A stretch of DNA of 30,737 nt. Origin: a virus. Position numbers and translations under genes: made by a program. The notes below the pieces were generated by a model. The model did not search any database. It worked only from the letters and a program-made list of their open reading frames with translations, and was not told the origin of the DNA. The stretch lies in the IMG/VR virus record IMGVR_UViG_3300017613_002046, positions 1 to 30,737 of that record. One strand, 5' to 3'. Below, in pieces: positions 4,201 through 27,421 of the stretch; positions within the stretch are counted from its first letter, which is position 1; each line of letters starts with the position of its first letter.

Positions 4201-6627
4201 CTATATGTCCTCATCTGAAAAGCTACGATTTCTACGACTGTCTTCTACTTTTCTAAGAGCTACACGTACAGCATTATCTATTTGTGTTTGAATTGACTCT
4301 GTATCCATAACCCCGTCCATAGAACTAACTACAATATCCCCAAAACTAATTTTTATATCTATAGGAGAATCACTTGATATCTTTTGAGAGTTTGATTTAT
4401 TTTCTATATTTGTATTGTTATGTACTGCATTTGTTATAGATTTATTGTCTACATCGTGAGTTTGAGTCTTAGGTGCAAATATTTGAACTGGTTGAATAGC
4501 TGCTACTTTTTCAACTACTGTATTATTAACAGTTTCACCTATTGGTTGAATTTGCGCTTGTGGTGTCAATACTGGATTAGGTTGTATAGCTGCCACTTTT
4601 TCAATAACTGTATTATTTACAGTTTTATCTACTGATTGTGTCTGATCTTGTGGTGTCAATATTGGATTAGGTTGAGCAGTTACAAGTTGTGCGGCCATAG
4701 CAGTACCTGCGATTGCTGTTTTAAAAGTGCTTGGTGACTTGTTTTCATCTGCTGAATCATCACCAAACTTAAACATGTTACTAGCTACTTTTAATCCATC
4801 ACCAATATTAGCACCAATACCACCTACAGTCTCACCTATACTACTTCCAATATTTGATACCTTGTCAACAACAGTACCAACTATATTAACTACCCATGCA
4901 AATTTACTTTCAATCCATGAAAAAAAGCTCACGAAAGGTCTTTTAATAAAATCTACAACACCATTAAATGATGATTTAATAGTACCCCACGCATTACTAA
5001 ATATATTTGAAACACCATCCCATAGAGCACTAAAAAATAATGTAATAGGTTTCCAGTTATTGAGCAACATCCCAACAGGTGTCCAGCCAAAATATGTTTT
5101 TATTATAGATATTGATGAATCAAAAACACTGACAACACCATCCCATAAACCAGTAAAAAATGAACTTATTGGTCCCCAAGCTTTATATATTCCATAACCA
5201 ACTGCAACTATCCCAGCTACTGCTAAACCAAGTGGATTCATTAAAAATGTACTTGTAACCGAAGCCATTGTAGTACCTAATAATCCAACAGCACCACTAA
5301 CCATACCAAACCCTACAGTTAAAGCAGGTAATGCCATACCAATAGCACTCATAGGTATTATAATTGCACCAGCTACAGTTAATAATGCACCTACCCCAGC
5401 AACTGTATAGGCAATAACTGTAGTTGCTGTTTTATTTTCTTCTGTAAAAGTTTGAATAGAATCAATTACATTACCAATAACACTAGTCATCTTAGTAACG
5501 ACTGGTGCAAATGCAACTCCAATAGTACTAGATACATTACCAATTTTTTGTTTTAGTAAATCAAACTCTTTGCCTTTGTTCATAGCAAGTGCCATCTCTC
5601 TAGTTTTTTTAGTACCCTCACCTAATGAGATATTCATCGTATTGATATTGCTAGTTAAAGTATCAGTTTCGTTATACATAAGCTTAACAAGAGCTACTGC
5701 TTCATCAGTTCCAAAAGCTTTTTTAAGTTCATCTGATTCTAATGCATCTATAGTCTCACCATATTTATCTTTTATAGTCTCTATAATTTTTGGCATTGAT
5801 AACATCTGATTATTTGCATCTGTAAACTGTAAATCTAACTTATCACCAGCACCCTGAGCAGAAGTTAAAAACGATCTATATTTAGTAGCAGCTTCGCTAC
5901 CACTCATAGTAGCTTGTAATTGACCAAGGATTGATAATTGTTCCGCAAAACTTATCCCTGCAGATGTAGCTTCTGCTCCAAGGCTAGATATAGCAGCACT
6001 CATATTTGCACCATCAGTTTTAAAAGCTTGAACAGATGAAGACATACCAGCACTAAAGTACTCACCAAATTTTATGTCTTTTTCTTCATCACTTAGTCTA
6101 TTCCAACCTTGTATAGTTGACACACCAAATTTATCAAACTGCTCACGATAGATTCCATAACCGGATGCAAATAATGAAGTCATCTCACTAGTACTTGATT
6201 TAGTAGCTGCGCCAGTCATAGCTGCTATTTTAGTAAATGAACCAACTGTGACATCACTTAAAGATGATATACCTGATTTTATATCATACGAAGCAGACAC
6301 AAAATCATTAGCAGTAGTTCCAGCAAATTGACTAGAAAATTCCTTAGCAGATTTAGTAATAGCATCTATACCCTTAGCACCAATACCAAGTGAAGCTATC
6401 TCACCCTGAGCCTTTTCCAAGTCTTTATATGCGCCTATCGTCTGTATAACTGGTGATAACATAGCCCTACCACTAGCATATGATGCAGTACCAATTACTG
6501 CCATTTGTCCACTTACTGCTTGAATTTTAGAAGCTAGTCTAGAAGCTGACTGACCAGCCTTCCCCATTACAGGAGAGAGCATATCTTTAGCACTTAACAT
6601 TACACCCAACGTAAACATATTATCCAT
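4201..6627 (-). CDS. T: Tail tape measure protein (gpT-like)
   Basis: 808 residues, the longest tail gene and placed between gpE/E' and gpU as in P2. The N-terminus has the TP901-type tape-measure pattern (SAKDMLSPVMGKAGQ, then ASYDIKSGISSL and AAISSLGAEATSAGI). The middle, about residues 400-480, contains several hydrophobic membrane-spanning-like helices rich in Gly/Ala, then Trp-containing WDGVVSVF and WDGVSNIF repeats. Near the C-terminus two 30-residue repeats contain VNNTVIEKVAAIQPNPVLTP and VNNTVVEKVAAIQP. It fills the tail tube, sets tail length and probably takes part in DNA passage through the inner membrane. A good RBS (GGAG) precedes the ATG. Confidence 0.9.
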   Translation of the reverse strand: MDNMFTLGVMLSAKDMLSPVMGKAGQSASRLASKIQAVSGQMAVIGTASYASGRAMLSPVIQTIGAYKDLEKAQGEIASLGIGAKGIDAITKSAKEFSSQFAGTTANDFVSASYDIKSGISSLSDVTVGSFTKIAAMTGAATKSSTSEMTSLFASGYGIYREQFDKFGVSTIQGWNRLSDEEKDIKFGEYFSAGMSSSVQAFKTDGANMSAAISSLGAEATSAGISFAEQLSILGQLQATMSGSEAATKYRSFLTSAQGAGDKLDLQFTDANNQMLSMPKIIETIKDKYGETIDALESDELKKAFGTDEAVALVKLMYNETDTLTSNINTMNISLGEGTKKTREMALAMNKGKEFDLLKQKIGNVSSTIGVAFAPVVTKMTSVIGNVIDSIQTFTEENKTATTVIAYTVAGVGALLTVAGAIIIPMSAIGMALPALTVGFGMVSGAVGLLGTTMASVTSTFLMNPLGLAVAGIVAVGYGIYKAWGPISSFFTGLWDGVVSVFDSSISIIKTYFGWTPVGMLLNNWKPITLFFSALWDGVSNIFSNAWGTIKSSFNGVVDFIKRPFVSFFSWIESKFAWVVNIVGTVVDKVSNIGSSIGETVGGIGANIGDGLKVASNMFKFGDDSADENKSPSTFKTAIAGTAMAAQLVTAQPNPILTPQDQTQSVDKTVNNTVIEKVAAIQPNPVLTPQAQIQPIGETVNNTVVEKVAAIQPVQIFAPKTQTHDVDNKSITNAVHNNTNIENKSNSQKISSDSPIDIKISFGDIVVSSMDGVMDTESIQTQIDNAVRVALRKVEDSRRNRSFSDEDI
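4480..4680 (-). repeat. 90-bp tandem repeat in tape measure gene
   Basis: TGGTGTCAATACTGGATTAG at 4561 recurs with one change at 4651, a period of exactly 90 bp (30 codons). The flanking AGCTGC(T/C)ACTTTTTCAA blocks repeat with a similar period. The repeat encodes Gln/Pro/Thr-rich segments near the tape-measure C-terminus. Recombination between the copies would change protein length in frame. Confidence 0.7.
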
Positions 6628-22671: not shown

Positions 22672-23259
22672 TCATTTCATCTTCCCCACGTAGTAGTTGA
22701 AGTTATCTTTGAAAAGTCTTGCTGTATTATCATTCACATAGTCTTGCATTATTGGTACACCTTCTTTTTCAAACATCTTAGCTGGACCAACTGTATTTAA
22801 TCTTCTTATCTTATCTCTACCAGTACGACTCTTAAGACCTGGAACTCTTTCAAAGATTCCTATGTTTCCACTCTTGCCAATCATTGTAAACGCATGGTTT
22901 AACTTATGAGCACTTCCACCTCTGATAATTTTAACCTTAACTGGTCTTCTACCTTTACGTCTTTTAGTTTTAAGACTACTGCTGATACTGCTTTTATTAA
23001 TGAAGTTAAATAAAGATACATCTCTAGATCTAACACTTAGTCTAGCTTCCAATGCTGTAAAGTTTGAACGTCTAACATTTATGTACCTCTTAAGCTGTTT
23101 AGATTTTATGTTGTAACGTTCTCTAACTTTTCTCTGACCAGCATTAGATCCTTGAACCATTAAATTATTAATAGTCCTATTGATAACCTTCTTACTCAAT
23201 TTAGAATCTAACGCTAACAGTACTTTGTCTAATCCACTAAGCCTTGCAGAAACTATCAT
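22672..23259 (-). CDS. Minor tail protein Z-like (gpZ family)
   Basis: 195 residues, strongly basic. MIVSARLSGLDKVLLALDSK, GSNAGQRKVRERYNIKSKQL, a central HAFTMIGKSGNIGIFERVPG and final TVGPAKMFEKEGVPIMQDYV are the lambda/Mu gpZ pattern (prophage minor tail protein Z), needed in lambda for correct positioning of DNA in the tail. Unusually, it lies upstream of the terminase genes, next to replication genes, away from the tail cluster. It overlaps the initiator gene by one base. Confidence 0.75.
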   Translation of the reverse strand: MIVSARLSGLDKVLLALDSKLSKKVINRTINNLMVQGSNAGQRKVRERYNIKSKQLKRYINVRRSNFTALEARLSVRSRDVSLFNFINKSSISSSLKTKRRKGRRPVKVKIIRGGSAHKLNHAFTMIGKSGNIGIFERVPGLKSRTGRDKIRRLNTVGPAKMFEKEGVPIMQDYVNDNTARLFKDNFNYYVGKMK

Positions 23260-24077
23260 TATGCTATCTTCTGTGCTGGATTTATAAATTCAAGTTTTCG
23301 TTCTTTATACAGTTCTACTAATCTTGAAGCTGATAACTGTCCAACAAAACCATTATCACCATGAAACATTGTTGTTTTGTCATCATAGTTACCACTTAAC
23401 CATTCATTATTAATATATATCTTCAACATTTTAGGCATGTACGATAAATATATTTCATTTTTCAAAAAGTTTGTGAGGTTATATCTCTTACCTTCTGTAT
23501 CAGGGTCATGTAAATATTGAACTGCTGCTAATTTTAAAAGACTCACATCAACAGTTATATTTTTAAACACATTAAACGCGTCTTCTTTTTTGCCTTTATA
23601 TTTAGTATTGACTCCATATATAAAAAACAAATCATTAAACTCTGGACTTTCCCAAAAAGCATTTGCGGTATTATTGTTATTATTTAGATTAAGAGCTTTG
23701 TTCGGGTGGTCATGTTCAGAGTGTTCGGATACTACTGATAAACTCCCTATATTTTGGGATAGATTAGTGTTCGGAGTGTTCGACTCTGAGTGTTCAGAGT
23801 GTTCGGATTGTTTTTTGACAGAGCTATAGTGTTGTTTATTTCTAAAGAACCAAGCATCATGATATAGATCTATTTGTTTTTTAAAATCATCAATCCAAGA
23901 GTGAGCGGTACCAGTTCCAACATCCCAACTCTTAGCATAAAACCTTACTGCATTATGCTCACCTTTTTCAATATCATAATGATATTCCCAAAAAGCTCTC
24001 GCTTTAGAACGTTGCCCTTTATTTCTTAACTCATCTGCATACCTAGTAGGAAAAGAAGCGTAAGCTATATTCATCAT
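23259..24077 (-). CDS. Replication initiator-like protein (lambda O-like)
   Basis: 272 residues. The N-terminal domain (RSKARAFWEYHYDIEKGEHN, then VRFYAKSWDVGTGTAHSWID) looks like a winged-helix DNA-binding domain as in replication initiators. A low-complexity linker follows (SEHSEHSE, then NNNNN), then a helical C-terminal domain (AFWESPEFNDLFFIYGVNTK). It overlaps a DnaB-like helicase gene by four bases, the classic initiator-helicase pairing. The linker DNA holds iteron-like repeats, so it probably binds its own gene as an origin, as lambda O does. Inferred from layout; family not certain. Confidence 0.6.
   Translation of the reverse strand: MMNIAYASFPTRYADELRNKGQRSKARAFWEYHYDIEKGEHNAVRFYAKSWDVGTGTAHSWIDDFKKQIDLYHDAWFFRNKQHYSSVKKQSEHSEHSESNTPNTNLSQNIGSLSVVSEHSEHDHPNKALNLNNNNNTANAFWESPEFNDLFFIYGVNTKYKGKKEDAFNVFKNITVDVSLLKLAAVQYLHDPDTEGKRYNLTNFLKNEIYLSYMPKMLKIYINNEWLSGNYDDKTTMFHGDNGFVGQLSASRLVELYKERKLEFINPAQKIA
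23698..23808. repeat. Iteron cluster, candidate replication origin
   Basis: GAGTGTTC occurs exactly at 23719, 23774, 23788 and 23797, with diverged copies near 23698, 23714 and 23766; a 17-bp block GTTCAGAGTGTTCGGAT is repeated at 23714 and 23792. The units are read in two frames: SEHSEH in one stretch and SNTPNTN in another, after a 5-base offset. Conservation of DNA but not of reading frame points to DNA-level function. An A/T-rich inverted repeat TCCC/GGGA (about 23744-23759) lies between the halves. Confidence 0.65.
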
Positions 24078-25309
24078 ATTACAGTCACTTCTATTTTGTC
24101 ATTATCACCATTACCATATGTTGGTAGAACCGTATACGATGTTTCAACAGCTCTAATATCTGTAAATGTCAGAGTCTCTTTATTAAACCAAAGAGGTACT
24201 TTTTTGCGAAGTAATACATCTTGACGAGCTTTCTCTATACTTAAAGTTACATCACTATCTTCACCTTCAAGAAGTAGTATTTTCATATCAGCTGCATAAT
24301 CACTAAGACTAGATCCATAACTTTTCATACGACCATTCTTTATATTCTCATCAGATATCTGAGTAATAAGAAATATAACCATATCTAAGTCATTAGATGC
24401 CCTTGCTAGTTGTTTGTCTATATCAGACTTCCTATCTACATCATTGTTACCTTTAAAGTGATTATTTGACAACTCCATCTTAGAATCAATAAGGGCAAAC
24501 CGTATACCACTCTTATTTTTTATTCTTCTCATCATCCTAACTACATCACTAACATCAGTTCCCATCATAGTAGAATCTATTATTTGATAGCTTCCAGGTC
24601 TAAATTTATTGTTTTTAAACTGTTTAGCTATCTTCCATTCTCTCATCTCAAAACTAAAAAACAATACATTATGTTTTTCACAGATATTTTTAAGTACCTG
24701 CTTAGTGAAAGTTGTTTTACCTATACCACTTTCACCACCAACATGAACAAGTTGAGAACTCTCAATCCCACCGCATAAAGCTTCATCTACTGTTCTGATA
24801 CCAAGTTGTATAAGTGGAGGCTCTACCATATTATTATAGTTTTGGATAGATATATTCATATCTATTGGTAGTGTAGTTGAAGTATTTTCTTCTAGTAGCA
24901 TTATTTGTTTCTCTACTTGAGCGATTGTATCGCTACTTGAAACACCCTCTTCTACTACACATCTTTTAATAGTAGTAGTTATGGTTAGAAGTTTTCTGAG
25001 TTTTGATAGTTCTTTAACCTCTTTCACATAAGCATTTGTATTTGCGATAGGATTAGTATTCATTATTTCAAGCATAATCTGTTCATCAAAAGACTTTAAA
25101 AGTAAAAGTTCTTTTTTTATGAATTCTTCATCTATTGGCATATTTTTTTGAGTAAGTATGTTCATAGCTGTAAACACATTTATATGAGCTGGTAGATAAA
25201 AATCATCACTCTTTAGTAAACCACCAAGTTCTTCAAATTGCTGTGGTTCGAAAAGAATACTACTTAGTAGTGACCTCTCAAATGCCATATTATATAAGCT
25301 ATCTTGCAT
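24074..25309 (-). CDS. DnaB-like replicative helicase
   Basis: 411 residues. An N-terminal DnaB-type domain (AFERSLLSSILFEPQQFEEL, then DDFYLPAHINVFTAMNIL) is followed by a RecA-like ATPase: Walker A GGESGIGKTT (191-200), the DnaB-like SFEM (219-222), Walker B-like FALIDSK (271-277) and LITQISD (314-320, sensor-like). It is shorter than host DnaB (about 470) and lacks some C-terminal segments, as phage-borne copies do. It unwinds DNA at the fork and is likely recruited by the adjacent initiator-like protein. It overlaps that gene by four bases. Confidence 0.85.
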   Translation of the reverse strand: MQDSLYNMAFERSLLSSILFEPQQFEELGGLLKSDDFYLPAHINVFTAMNILTQKNMPIDEEFIKKELLLLKSFDEQIMLEIMNTNPIANTNAYVKEVKELSKLRKLLTITTTIKRCVVEEGVSSSDTIAQVEKQIMLLEENTSTTLPIDMNISIQNYNNMVEPPLIQLGIRTVDEALCGGIESSQLVHVGGESGIGKTTFTKQVLKNICEKHNVLFFSFEMREWKIAKQFKNNKFRPGSYQIIDSTMMGTDVSDVVRMMRRIKNKSGIRFALIDSKMELSNNHFKGNNDVDRKSDIDKQLARASNDLDMVIFLITQISDENIKNGRMKSYGSSLSDYAADMKILLLEGEDSDVTLSIEKARQDVLLRKKVPLWFNKETLTFTDIRAVETSYTVLPTYGNGDNDKIEVTVI

Positions 25310-26691: not shown

Positions 26692-27060
26692 ATGTTCGAT
26701 TATAAAAAATTTTCTTCATTATTAAAAAAATCTACTTTTAATGATAAAAAACTTACTTCTGATTCTTTACATCAAGAGTTAGATAACAGAGGCTTTGAAA
26801 TTGGTGTAGAAACCATTAAAAGCTATAGAAAAGGAAATATTAAAAATCCTCCAATTGATATATTGAATGAGATTGCTAATATTGCGAACTGTTCAATTCA
26901 AGATTTTTTCTCAGATGCAGATAAAAAGCGTGAGCAAATTACTCGTGAAGAAATATCTAAAGACCCTAAAAAATATATAAATTATATATTATCCTCTCTA
27001 AAAGATATTGACTACTCAGACGAAAACATTGACTTACTAAAAGATGCTTTAGCTAAATAA
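26692..27060 (+). CDS. HTH regulator 1 (CI-position repressor)
   Basis: 122 residues. An N-terminal helical XRE-type HTH domain (SLHQELDNRGFEIGVETIKS, recognition helix about 30-45) is followed by ILNEIANIANCSIQDFF, the usual fifth helix of this fold. The C-terminus carries LKDIDYSDENIDLLKDALAK, a motif shared with the next gene. There is no peptidase domain, so RecA-driven self-cleavage as in lambda CI is not expected; induction must work otherwise. It is divergent from the leftward operon and flanked by operators 1 and 2. Confidence 0.75.
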   Translation: MFDYKKFSSLLKKSTFNDKKLTSDSLHQELDNRGFEIGVETIKSYRKGNIKNPPIDILNEIANIANCSIQDFFSDADKKREQITREEISKDPKKYINYILSSLKDIDYSDENIDLLKDALAK

Positions 27061-27093
27061 ACTACTTTAAAGAGTGTTAGCCTATGCCATAAT

Positions 27094-27108
27094 ATTCCTA
27101 AAAGGAAT
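27094..27108 (+). promoter_or_regulatory. Inverted repeat covering the ribosome binding site
   Basis: ATTCCT-AAA-AGGAAT (27094-27108) is a perfect 15-bp inverted repeat in which AGGA is the Shine-Dalgarno for the second regulator. Folding in RNA would hide it; in DNA it may be a binding site. Either would link translation or transcription of the second regulator to a signal. Confidence 0.5.
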
Positions 27109-27112
27109 GTTC

Positions 27113-27421
27113 TTGAGTATAGAAGTAGCAGCTAGAATACGAAAGCTTTTAGATGATAAAAAAATAGCACATAAGGAAATAGAAACACTTTTAAATGATA
27201 GTCAGTCTAATATTTCCAGATGGTTAAGTATAAATGAAAAAGTAAACAATGTTATGCCGAACTCAAACTTGGTAAAAATAGCTAAATATTTAAACACTAC
27301 TACAGATTATCTTTTAGGTGCAGTTGAAAGTGATGTATCAATAGAAGACCTTTTAAGTAAGCTACAAAGCTTGGAATACTCAGATGATAATATTAACTTG
27401 CTAAAAGATGCTCTGTCTTAG
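27113..27421 (+). CDS. HTH regulator 2 (XRE/CI-like)
   Basis: About 102 residues. The TTG at 27113 is favoured, six bases after AGGA; the ATG at 27107 has no room for an RBS and the GTG at 27074 lacks one. A clear XRE-type HTH is present (EVAARIRKLLDDKKIAHKEI, then SQSNISRWLS and NSNLVKIAKYLNTTTDYLLG). The C-terminus ends LEYSDDNINLLKDALS, almost the same as the motif ending regulator 1, so the two are paralogues or share a partner-binding tail. It lies 52 bases after regulator 1. Its end overlaps the convergent gene 27393-27638. Confidence 0.75.
   Translation: MSIEVAARIRKLLDDKKIAHKEIETLLNDSQSNISRWLSINEKVNNVMPNSNLVKIAKYLNTTTDYLLGAVESDVSIEDLLSKLQSLEYSDDNINLLKDALS

What the first reader, a model, noticed from the sequence alone, without database searches (positions are those of the whole stretch)
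23698..23808. Iterons inside the initiator gene, read in two frames
GAGTGTTC units repeat at 9-bp steps and are preserved across a 5-base offset, so the same DNA unit encodes Ser-Glu-His repeats in one stretch and Ser-Asn-Thr-Pro-Asn-Thr in the next. Selection on protein would not keep this, selection on DNA would. The gene sits next to a DnaB-like helicase, as lambda O (with iterons inside O) sits near its helicase-loading partner. This points to an origin in the linker region of the initiator gene.
Basis: partly seen in the sequence, partly recalled or inferred. Interest (0 to 1): 0.62.

Follow-up and report, generated by a model that had tools for sequence, protein, structure and literature searches.

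The report
Phage origin hidden in initiator gene
Short DNA repeats in the middle of a phage replication gene, kept in much the same layout in about 50 related phages and prophages even though their letters and the protein they encode change, are most likely the docking sites where the gene's own protein starts copying the phage genome.

Summary
On the minus strand seven GAACA-type units lie in the linker codons of a 272-aa gene (23259-24077), at offsets 0, 9, 23, 32 and 78, 87, 101, in two reading frames. Synonymous recoding does not reproduce them (GAACACT 5 times; at most 3 in 20,000 recodings). I tabulated 51 family members, Campylobacterota phages and prophages where the host is known. All carry unit arrays in the same linker (one irregular). 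The unit changes (CGAACA, CGAGCA, CGAACG, TGAACA, GGGACA, CGGACA, GCAACA, GGGGCA), spacing stays near one helical turn (best period 11.0 bp) and frames vary freely: DNA, not protein, is conserved. Among 205 protein columns, the two best predictors of unit base 1 are residues 56 and 60, in the predicted recognition helix; Arg60 goes with G1 in 8 of 8 members, and none of the other 43 has G1. A DnaB-like helicase gene lies directly upstream. Best explanation: a lambda/P22-style origin inside the initiator gene, bound by that initiator. Binding is strongly inferred; origin activity rests on analogy and is untested. The protein is not a detectable lambda O homologue. New variant of a known kind; the added value is a natural series of initiator-origin specificity switches.

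The parts
23259..24077 (-). Initiator-like gene, 272 aa: N-terminal HTH domain (aa ~10-92), disordered linker (aa 93-137), C-terminal domain (aa 138-272)
   Evidence: ORF; AlphaFold2 on 35 relatives: N-domain pLDDT 90-98, linker below 50, C-domain about 80-91; relatives match PHROG replication initiation / DnaD-like loader families weakly
23892..23948 (-). Codons of the HTH (aa 44-62), including candidate specificity residues 55, 56, 59 and 60
   Evidence: Model helices 44-50 and 55-96; columns 56 and 60 rank first and second of 205 for unit base 1
23768..23805 (-). Iteron cluster 1: units (xGAACx) at 23800-23805, 23791-23796, 23777-23782, 23768-23773; spacing 9, 14, 9
   Evidence: Sequence; recoding test
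23728..23767 (-). Spacer between clusters; the unit-to-unit distance of 46 bp across it is shared by many relatives. Holds TCCCAAAATATAGGGA, whose dyad is not supported as a separate element
23699..23727 (-). Iteron cluster 2: units at 23722-23727, 23713-23718, 23699-23704; spacing 9, 14
   Evidence: Sequence
23667..23697 (-). A+T-rich stretch next to cluster 2 (AGCTCTTAATCTAAATAATAACAATAATACC), candidate unwinding element
   Evidence: 45 nt after the last unit are 71% A+T against 68% for the gene; family mean 72% against 65%, higher in 45 of 50. A weak signal
24074..25309 (-). DnaB-like replicative helicase, 411 aa, overlapping the initiator start by 4 bp
   Evidence: Pfam DnaB N domain E 1.6e-19, DnaB_C 2.4e-11; PHROG 19 E 1.3e-34; a homologue lies upstream of nearly every full-length family member whose locus was checked

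Best explanation
The segment 23699-23805 is an array of initiator-binding sites (iterons), most likely the core of the phage's replication origin, placed in the codons of the disordered linker of the very initiator that binds it. The N-terminal HTH would read about one unit per helical turn, so several monomers line up on one face of the DNA in two clusters. The complex would strain the neighbouring A+T-rich stretch, and the C-terminal domain would bring in the phage's own DnaB-like helicase. Shown: the repeats, their conservation as DNA rather than protein, their phased layout, their covariation with the HTH, and the helicase neighbour. Inferred: binding itself, strand opening, helicase loading and origin firing.
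For: Repeats beyond synonymous expectation in the window and, with a statistic that preselects no k-mer, in 50 of 50 genes. Same linker position, two clusters, frames free to vary. Units phased at 11.0 bp, mean resultant 0.88 against a null maximum of 0.48. Frozen synonymous sites within units, P = 0.00026. Of 205 protein columns, residues 56 and 60 of the predicted recognition helix rank first and second for unit base 1; Arg60 with G1 in 8 of 8 members, G1 in 0 of 43 others, 5 of 5 independent pairs on supported branches. Natural pair L032/L053: 96-98% identical C-domain, Arg60/GGGACA against Asp60/CGGACA. Helicase gene directly upstream. Published precedents: lambda O (PMC7466680), P22 and phage L gene 18 next to helicase gene 12 (PMC8022706), SPP1 gene 38 (PMC6316719).
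Against: No binding or replication data. The protein has no sequence or clear structural match to a studied initiator. A+T enrichment beside the array is weak. GC skew shows no switch here. Independent pairs are few (sign test 0.0625), the helix link was first noticed by eye, and unit base 4 is not explained by the helix. L003, L016 and L026 have partly decayed arrays and L032 an irregular one.
Confidence: 0.83

Rival explanations
1. The units bind the initiator but serve as a control element (autoregulation, copy control or handcuffing) and not as the place where replication starts.
For: The evidence for binding does not distinguish the two. Plasmid iterons are known to act in control as well (general knowledge). 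A+T enrichment is weak.
Against: Mid-gene position is unusual for an operator. In studied phages such in-gene iterons are origins. No other copy of the GAACACT unit exists in the window that could be the origin instead.
Confidence: 0.1
2. The units are a packaging (pac/cos) or other terminase-binding site, since terminase genes follow directly.
For: The gpZ/terS/terL genes lie immediately downstream in the window. SPP1-type pac sites and lambda cosB contain repeats (general knowledge).
Against: L004 has the identical 9-14-9 | 9-14 layout and a similar unit, but a non-homologous terminase about 3 kb away; several other relatives lack homologous packaging genes nearby. Units covary with the initiator's HTH.
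Confidence: 0.02
3. The repeats bind another protein, for example host DnaA or a phage regulator, and the initiator link is coincidental.
For: No binding experiment exists. Lambdoid origins also use host factors (PMC7466680).
Against: Unit base 1 is best predicted by two residues of the gene's own recognition helix out of 205 columns. A host factor would not explain different units in sister phages such as L032/L053 or L002/L003.
Confidence: 0.03
4. The repeats are a protein-level repeat in a low-complexity linker, with no function as DNA.
For: The linker is predicted disordered and rich in polar residues, where short tandem repeats arise easily.
Against: Units cross reading frames within single genes and between relatives; synonymous sites are frozen; the recoding null fails in 50 of 50 genes; spacing is phased at 11.0 bp.
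Confidence: 0.02

Closest known systems
Phage lambda origin inside gene O (and Stx lambdoid phages)
   Same: Direct repeats in mid-gene codons of the initiator, bound by it, flanked by an A+T-rich tract; 4 or 6 iterons (PMC7466680; annotated in J02459).
   Different: Lambda iterons are 18 bp, 20-24 bp apart, each an inverted repeat; here the units are about 6-9 bp, direct, one turn apart, in two clusters. Lambda O belongs to Pfam PF04492; this family does not match it. Lambda uses a loader (P) for the host helicase; here the phage has its own DnaB-like helicase.
P22 and phage L genes 18 and 12
   Same: Initiator gene with in-gene repeats next to a DnaB-type helicase gene; phage L has six 11-bp repeats (TGTCCAACGGA), and the three related initiators each go with different iterons (PMC8022706). 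The closest in layout and gene content.
   Different: Gene order is initiator then helicase in P22 and the reverse here. P22 gp18 belongs to O-like PHROGs, which the family members scanned here do not match.
SPP1 oriL inside gene 38 (replisome organizer)
   Same: Direct repeats plus A+T-rich unwinding element within the initiator gene; phage-encoded DnaB-type helicase (PMC6316719).
   Different: SPP1 has a second origin (oriR) and a separate helicase loader gp39; neither was seen in this window.
PLE satellite RepA and origin modules
   [quoted passage not shown] cognate pairing shown by experiment (PMC8263062).
   [quoted passage not shown] repeats and protein do not share codons.

Membership tests
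Phage origin located inside its initiator gene (functional kind) | Direct repeats within the coding sequence, conserved as DNA | tested here: met
Phage origin located inside its initiator gene (functional kind) | The encoded protein binds the repeats | tested here: inconclusive
   Only indirect: covariation of unit bases with recognition-helix residues
Phage origin located inside its initiator gene (functional kind) | A+T-rich unwinding element next to the repeats | tested here: inconclusive
   Family mean 72% against 65% for the gene, 45 of 50 higher; weak in the window, 71% against 68%
Phage origin located inside its initiator gene (functional kind) | Replicative helicase or loader gene adjacent | tested here: met
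   DnaB-like gene directly upstream in the window and in nearly all loci long enough to show it
Phage origin located inside its initiator gene (functional kind) | Replication starts at the repeats | not testable with these tools
   Needs marker-frequency mapping or a plasmid replication assay
Lambda O protein family (Pfam PF04492 Phage_rep_O; O-like PHROGs) | Profile match of the initiator | tested here: not met
   No match for the window or 24 relatives, while lambda O itself scores E 5.7e-36; hhalign of the family alignment against lambda O gives probability 0.1%
Lambda O protein family (Pfam PF04492 Phage_rep_O; O-like PHROGs) | Four or more ~18-bp iterons with internal symmetry | tested here: not met
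   Units are short direct repeats 9-14 bp apart against lambda 18 bp at 20-24 bp
PHROG 270, replication initiation protein | Profile match of the initiator | tested here: inconclusive
   Window protein does not match; several relatives match at E 3e-7 to 2e-4, partly over the low-complexity linker; P22 gp18 also matches. A distant tie at most
Phage pac/cos site | Tied to a particular terminase | tested here: not met
   Array kept in L004 with an unrelated terminase

The most novel reading that the evidence does not exclude
This phage family is a natural record of an initiator and its origin changing specificity together, many times, inside one gene, with a readable code between recognition-helix residues (60 and 56 for unit base 1, 59 for base 3, 55 for base 6) and the unit. 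The switches may be driven by incompatibility between co-resident prophages or by interference aimed at origins.
Probability: 0.45. Interest if true: 0.7.

Novelty: new variant of a known kind. Interest (0 to 1): 0.52.

Why it matters
Origins inside initiator genes are textbook, but there the DNA code and the protein code constrain each other and only a few examples have been compared. Here about 50 natural versions, with at least 13 changes of unit base 1 on the family tree, show which layout stays and which letters move. That makes initiator-origin co-evolution directly testable, down to one predicted residue-base pair (Arg60 with G1, from the L032/L053 pair). It also gives candidate origins for temperate phages of Sulfurimonas and other Campylobacterota, including the isolated prophage SNW-1, whose paper does not mention an origin.

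Tried and rejected
Central dyad TCCCAAAATATAGGGA between the clusters as a further element: not supported (2 of 45 genes at P < 0.05 against recoding). GC skew as an origin marker: no switch at the array; skew is negative nearly throughout, so it says nothing. PDB fold search: no match below E 0.5, only weak HTH similarities. BFVD fold search: hits at E 3e-4 to 1e-2 include a replisome organizer and a DUF1376 protein, but overall TM is low because of the flexible linker. N-domain folded without an alignment: poor model, not used. Pfam and NCBIfam on the initiator: nothing relevant. pac/cos reading: rejected as the main reading because L004 keeps the array with an unrelated terminase. A helix code for unit base 4 (GAGC against GAAC): not found, residue 55 ranks 29th. 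One family search failed on a wrong strand.

Full report
What is in the window. The window is an entire IMG/VR virus record of 30,737 bases. On the minus strand, in order of transcription, lie a CII-like regulator, small ORFs, a DnaB-like helicase (24074-25309), the 272-aa gene in question (23259-24077), a gpZ/neck-like gene, and terminase and portal genes. The helicase gene and the 272-aa gene overlap by 4 bp.

The observation. The linker codons of the 272-aa gene hold seven GAACA-type units at offsets 0, 9, 23, 32 and 78, 87, 101, the frame shifting at the 14-bp (9 + 5) steps. All five exact GAACACT copies of the window are here. With the protein held fixed and codons drawn from the phage's own usage, 20,000 recodings gave at most 3 GAACACT (observed 5) and at most 6 GAACA (observed 7), and only one reached the observed number of identical 6-mer pairs.

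Relatives. The protein alone finds two relatives. Alignments of the family reach 40 or more loci in viral contigs, three in the genome collection (Nitratiruptor, Sulfurimonas and an unnamed Campylobacterota MAG), 18 of 397 genomes of that phylum, some of them fragments, and the isolated prophage SNW-1 of Sulfurimonas indica. The viral and genome scans that used alignments relied on conserved N-domain or C-domain peptides, not on the repeats, so the presence of repeats was not selected for. After removing duplicates and fragments, 51 members were tabulated.

The array as DNA. In 50 of the 51, regularly spaced units were found by script in the same linker; core motifs were chosen per gene after inspection. 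The last (L032) has irregular units and its consensus was set by hand. Layout classes are 0,9,23,32 | 78,87,101; 0,11,20 | 66,77; 0,11,22 | 76-77,87,98 (or | 87,98); and 0,11,33 | 89,111,122. Units differ: CGAACA, CGAGCA, CGAACG, TGAACA/G, GGAACG, AGAACG, GGGACA, CGGACA, GGGGCA, GCAACA, GAGACG. Reading frames vary within and between genes. In L021 the same 0, 9, 23, 32 layout encodes GTIGTIKLERLEHH. A statistic that preselects no k-mer rejects the recoding null in 50 of 50 genes. In five closely related members (L010, L011, L012, L014, L015) third bases inside units are conserved in 11 of 12 identical-residue codons, against 75 of 200 elsewhere (P = 0.00026). Pooled positions fit a period of 11.0 bp with mean resultant 0.88, against a null maximum of 0.48 for random positions, so the units lie on one face of the helix.

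The protein. AlphaFold2 on a 35-sequence alignment gives a confident helical N-domain with an HTH (helices 44-50 and 55 onward), a linker below pLDDT 50 at aa 93-137, and a C-domain at about 80-91. The array sits almost exactly in the disordered linker, where protein constraint should be least. The window protein itself has no relevant Pfam, PHROG or NCBIfam match. Relatives with another type of C-domain weakly match PHROG 270 (replication initiation) and PHROG 1701 (DnaD-like loader). Lambda O matches PF04492 strongly and the family does not.

Who binds. I noticed the helix-unit link while reading the table, so I then screened all 205 variable protein columns outside the linker against the unit bases. 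For base 1 the two top columns are residues 56 and 60, both in the recognition helix. For base 6 residue 55 is third; for base 3 residue 59 is third; for base 4 no helix residue stands out. Arg60 occurs with G1 in 8 of 8 members, and none of the 43 others has G1. Five of five independent pairs on supported branches agree, which is all this tree allows (sign test 0.0625). The screen weights near-identical sequences down but is not phylogeny-corrected, and the tree is a quick one. Two natural pairs stand out. L032 and L053 are 96-98% identical through the C-domain but differ at residue 60 (Arg, Asp) and in unit base 1 (G, C). L002 and L003 are sisters, yet L002 carries the helix motif, unit (CGAGCA) and layout of the distant L010-L015 group, while aa 63-88 in between stay like L003. 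This is what one expects if helix and units must match, whether by recombination or by parallel change.

Interpretation. The initiator most likely binds its own linker codons, and the site is most likely the origin. Position, A+T-rich neighbour (weak), helicase neighbour and precedents (lambda O, P22 and L gene 18, SPP1 gene 38) point the same way. A pure control role for the sites cannot be excluded from sequence. The packaging reading is weak because L004 keeps the array with an unrelated terminase. A protein-only reading is contradicted by the frame changes and the frozen synonymous sites.

Novelty. The principle is known; phage L even has 11-bp repeats in gene 18, and modular initiator/origin pairs are shown for PLE satellites. 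What appears new is this initiator family, the two-cluster one-turn layout, and a series of specificity switches large enough to read a candidate code from. Literature was searched only in the open-access library held, so priority cannot be asserted.

Noticed in passing
L028:818-1129, L032:5009-5221, L044:1033-1287, L045:5932-6234: A short ORF encoding only the N-terminal HTH domain of this family sits directly upstream of the full initiator gene in four relatives; a possible decoy, regulator or remnant of duplication.
   Followed up: no
L022, L023, L025, L042, L043, L046, L054, L057, L102 against the window: The N-domain and the array persist while the C-terminal domain is of a clearly different type (FEILWNxYDKKSSNK...), suggesting that the part thought to contact the helicase is exchanged independently of origin recognition.
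   Followed up: partly
window 26692-27060 and 27074-27421, + strand: Two tandem Cro/CI-like HTH genes whose C-terminal tails are nearly alike (YSDENIDLLKDALAK and YSDDNINLLKDALS), as if the pair arose by duplication or shares a tail-binding partner.
   Followed up: no
L066 (ORF 1420-2175): A distant relative (E 4e-6) has GAAACACnnnAAT-type repeats at 12-bp steps in its linker, encoding ETLNETLNETL; possibly the same kind of array in a more distant initiator.
   Followed up: no
window 4490-4675 and 771-862: Tandem repeats of period 90 (2.1 copies) and 42 (2.2 copies) outside the replication region.
   Followed up: no
L002 against L003 and L014: Mosaic initiator: aa 44-62 and the linker resemble L014 (95% and about 60% aa identity) while aa 63-88 and the C-domain resemble sister L003 (75-88%).
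   Followed up: yes
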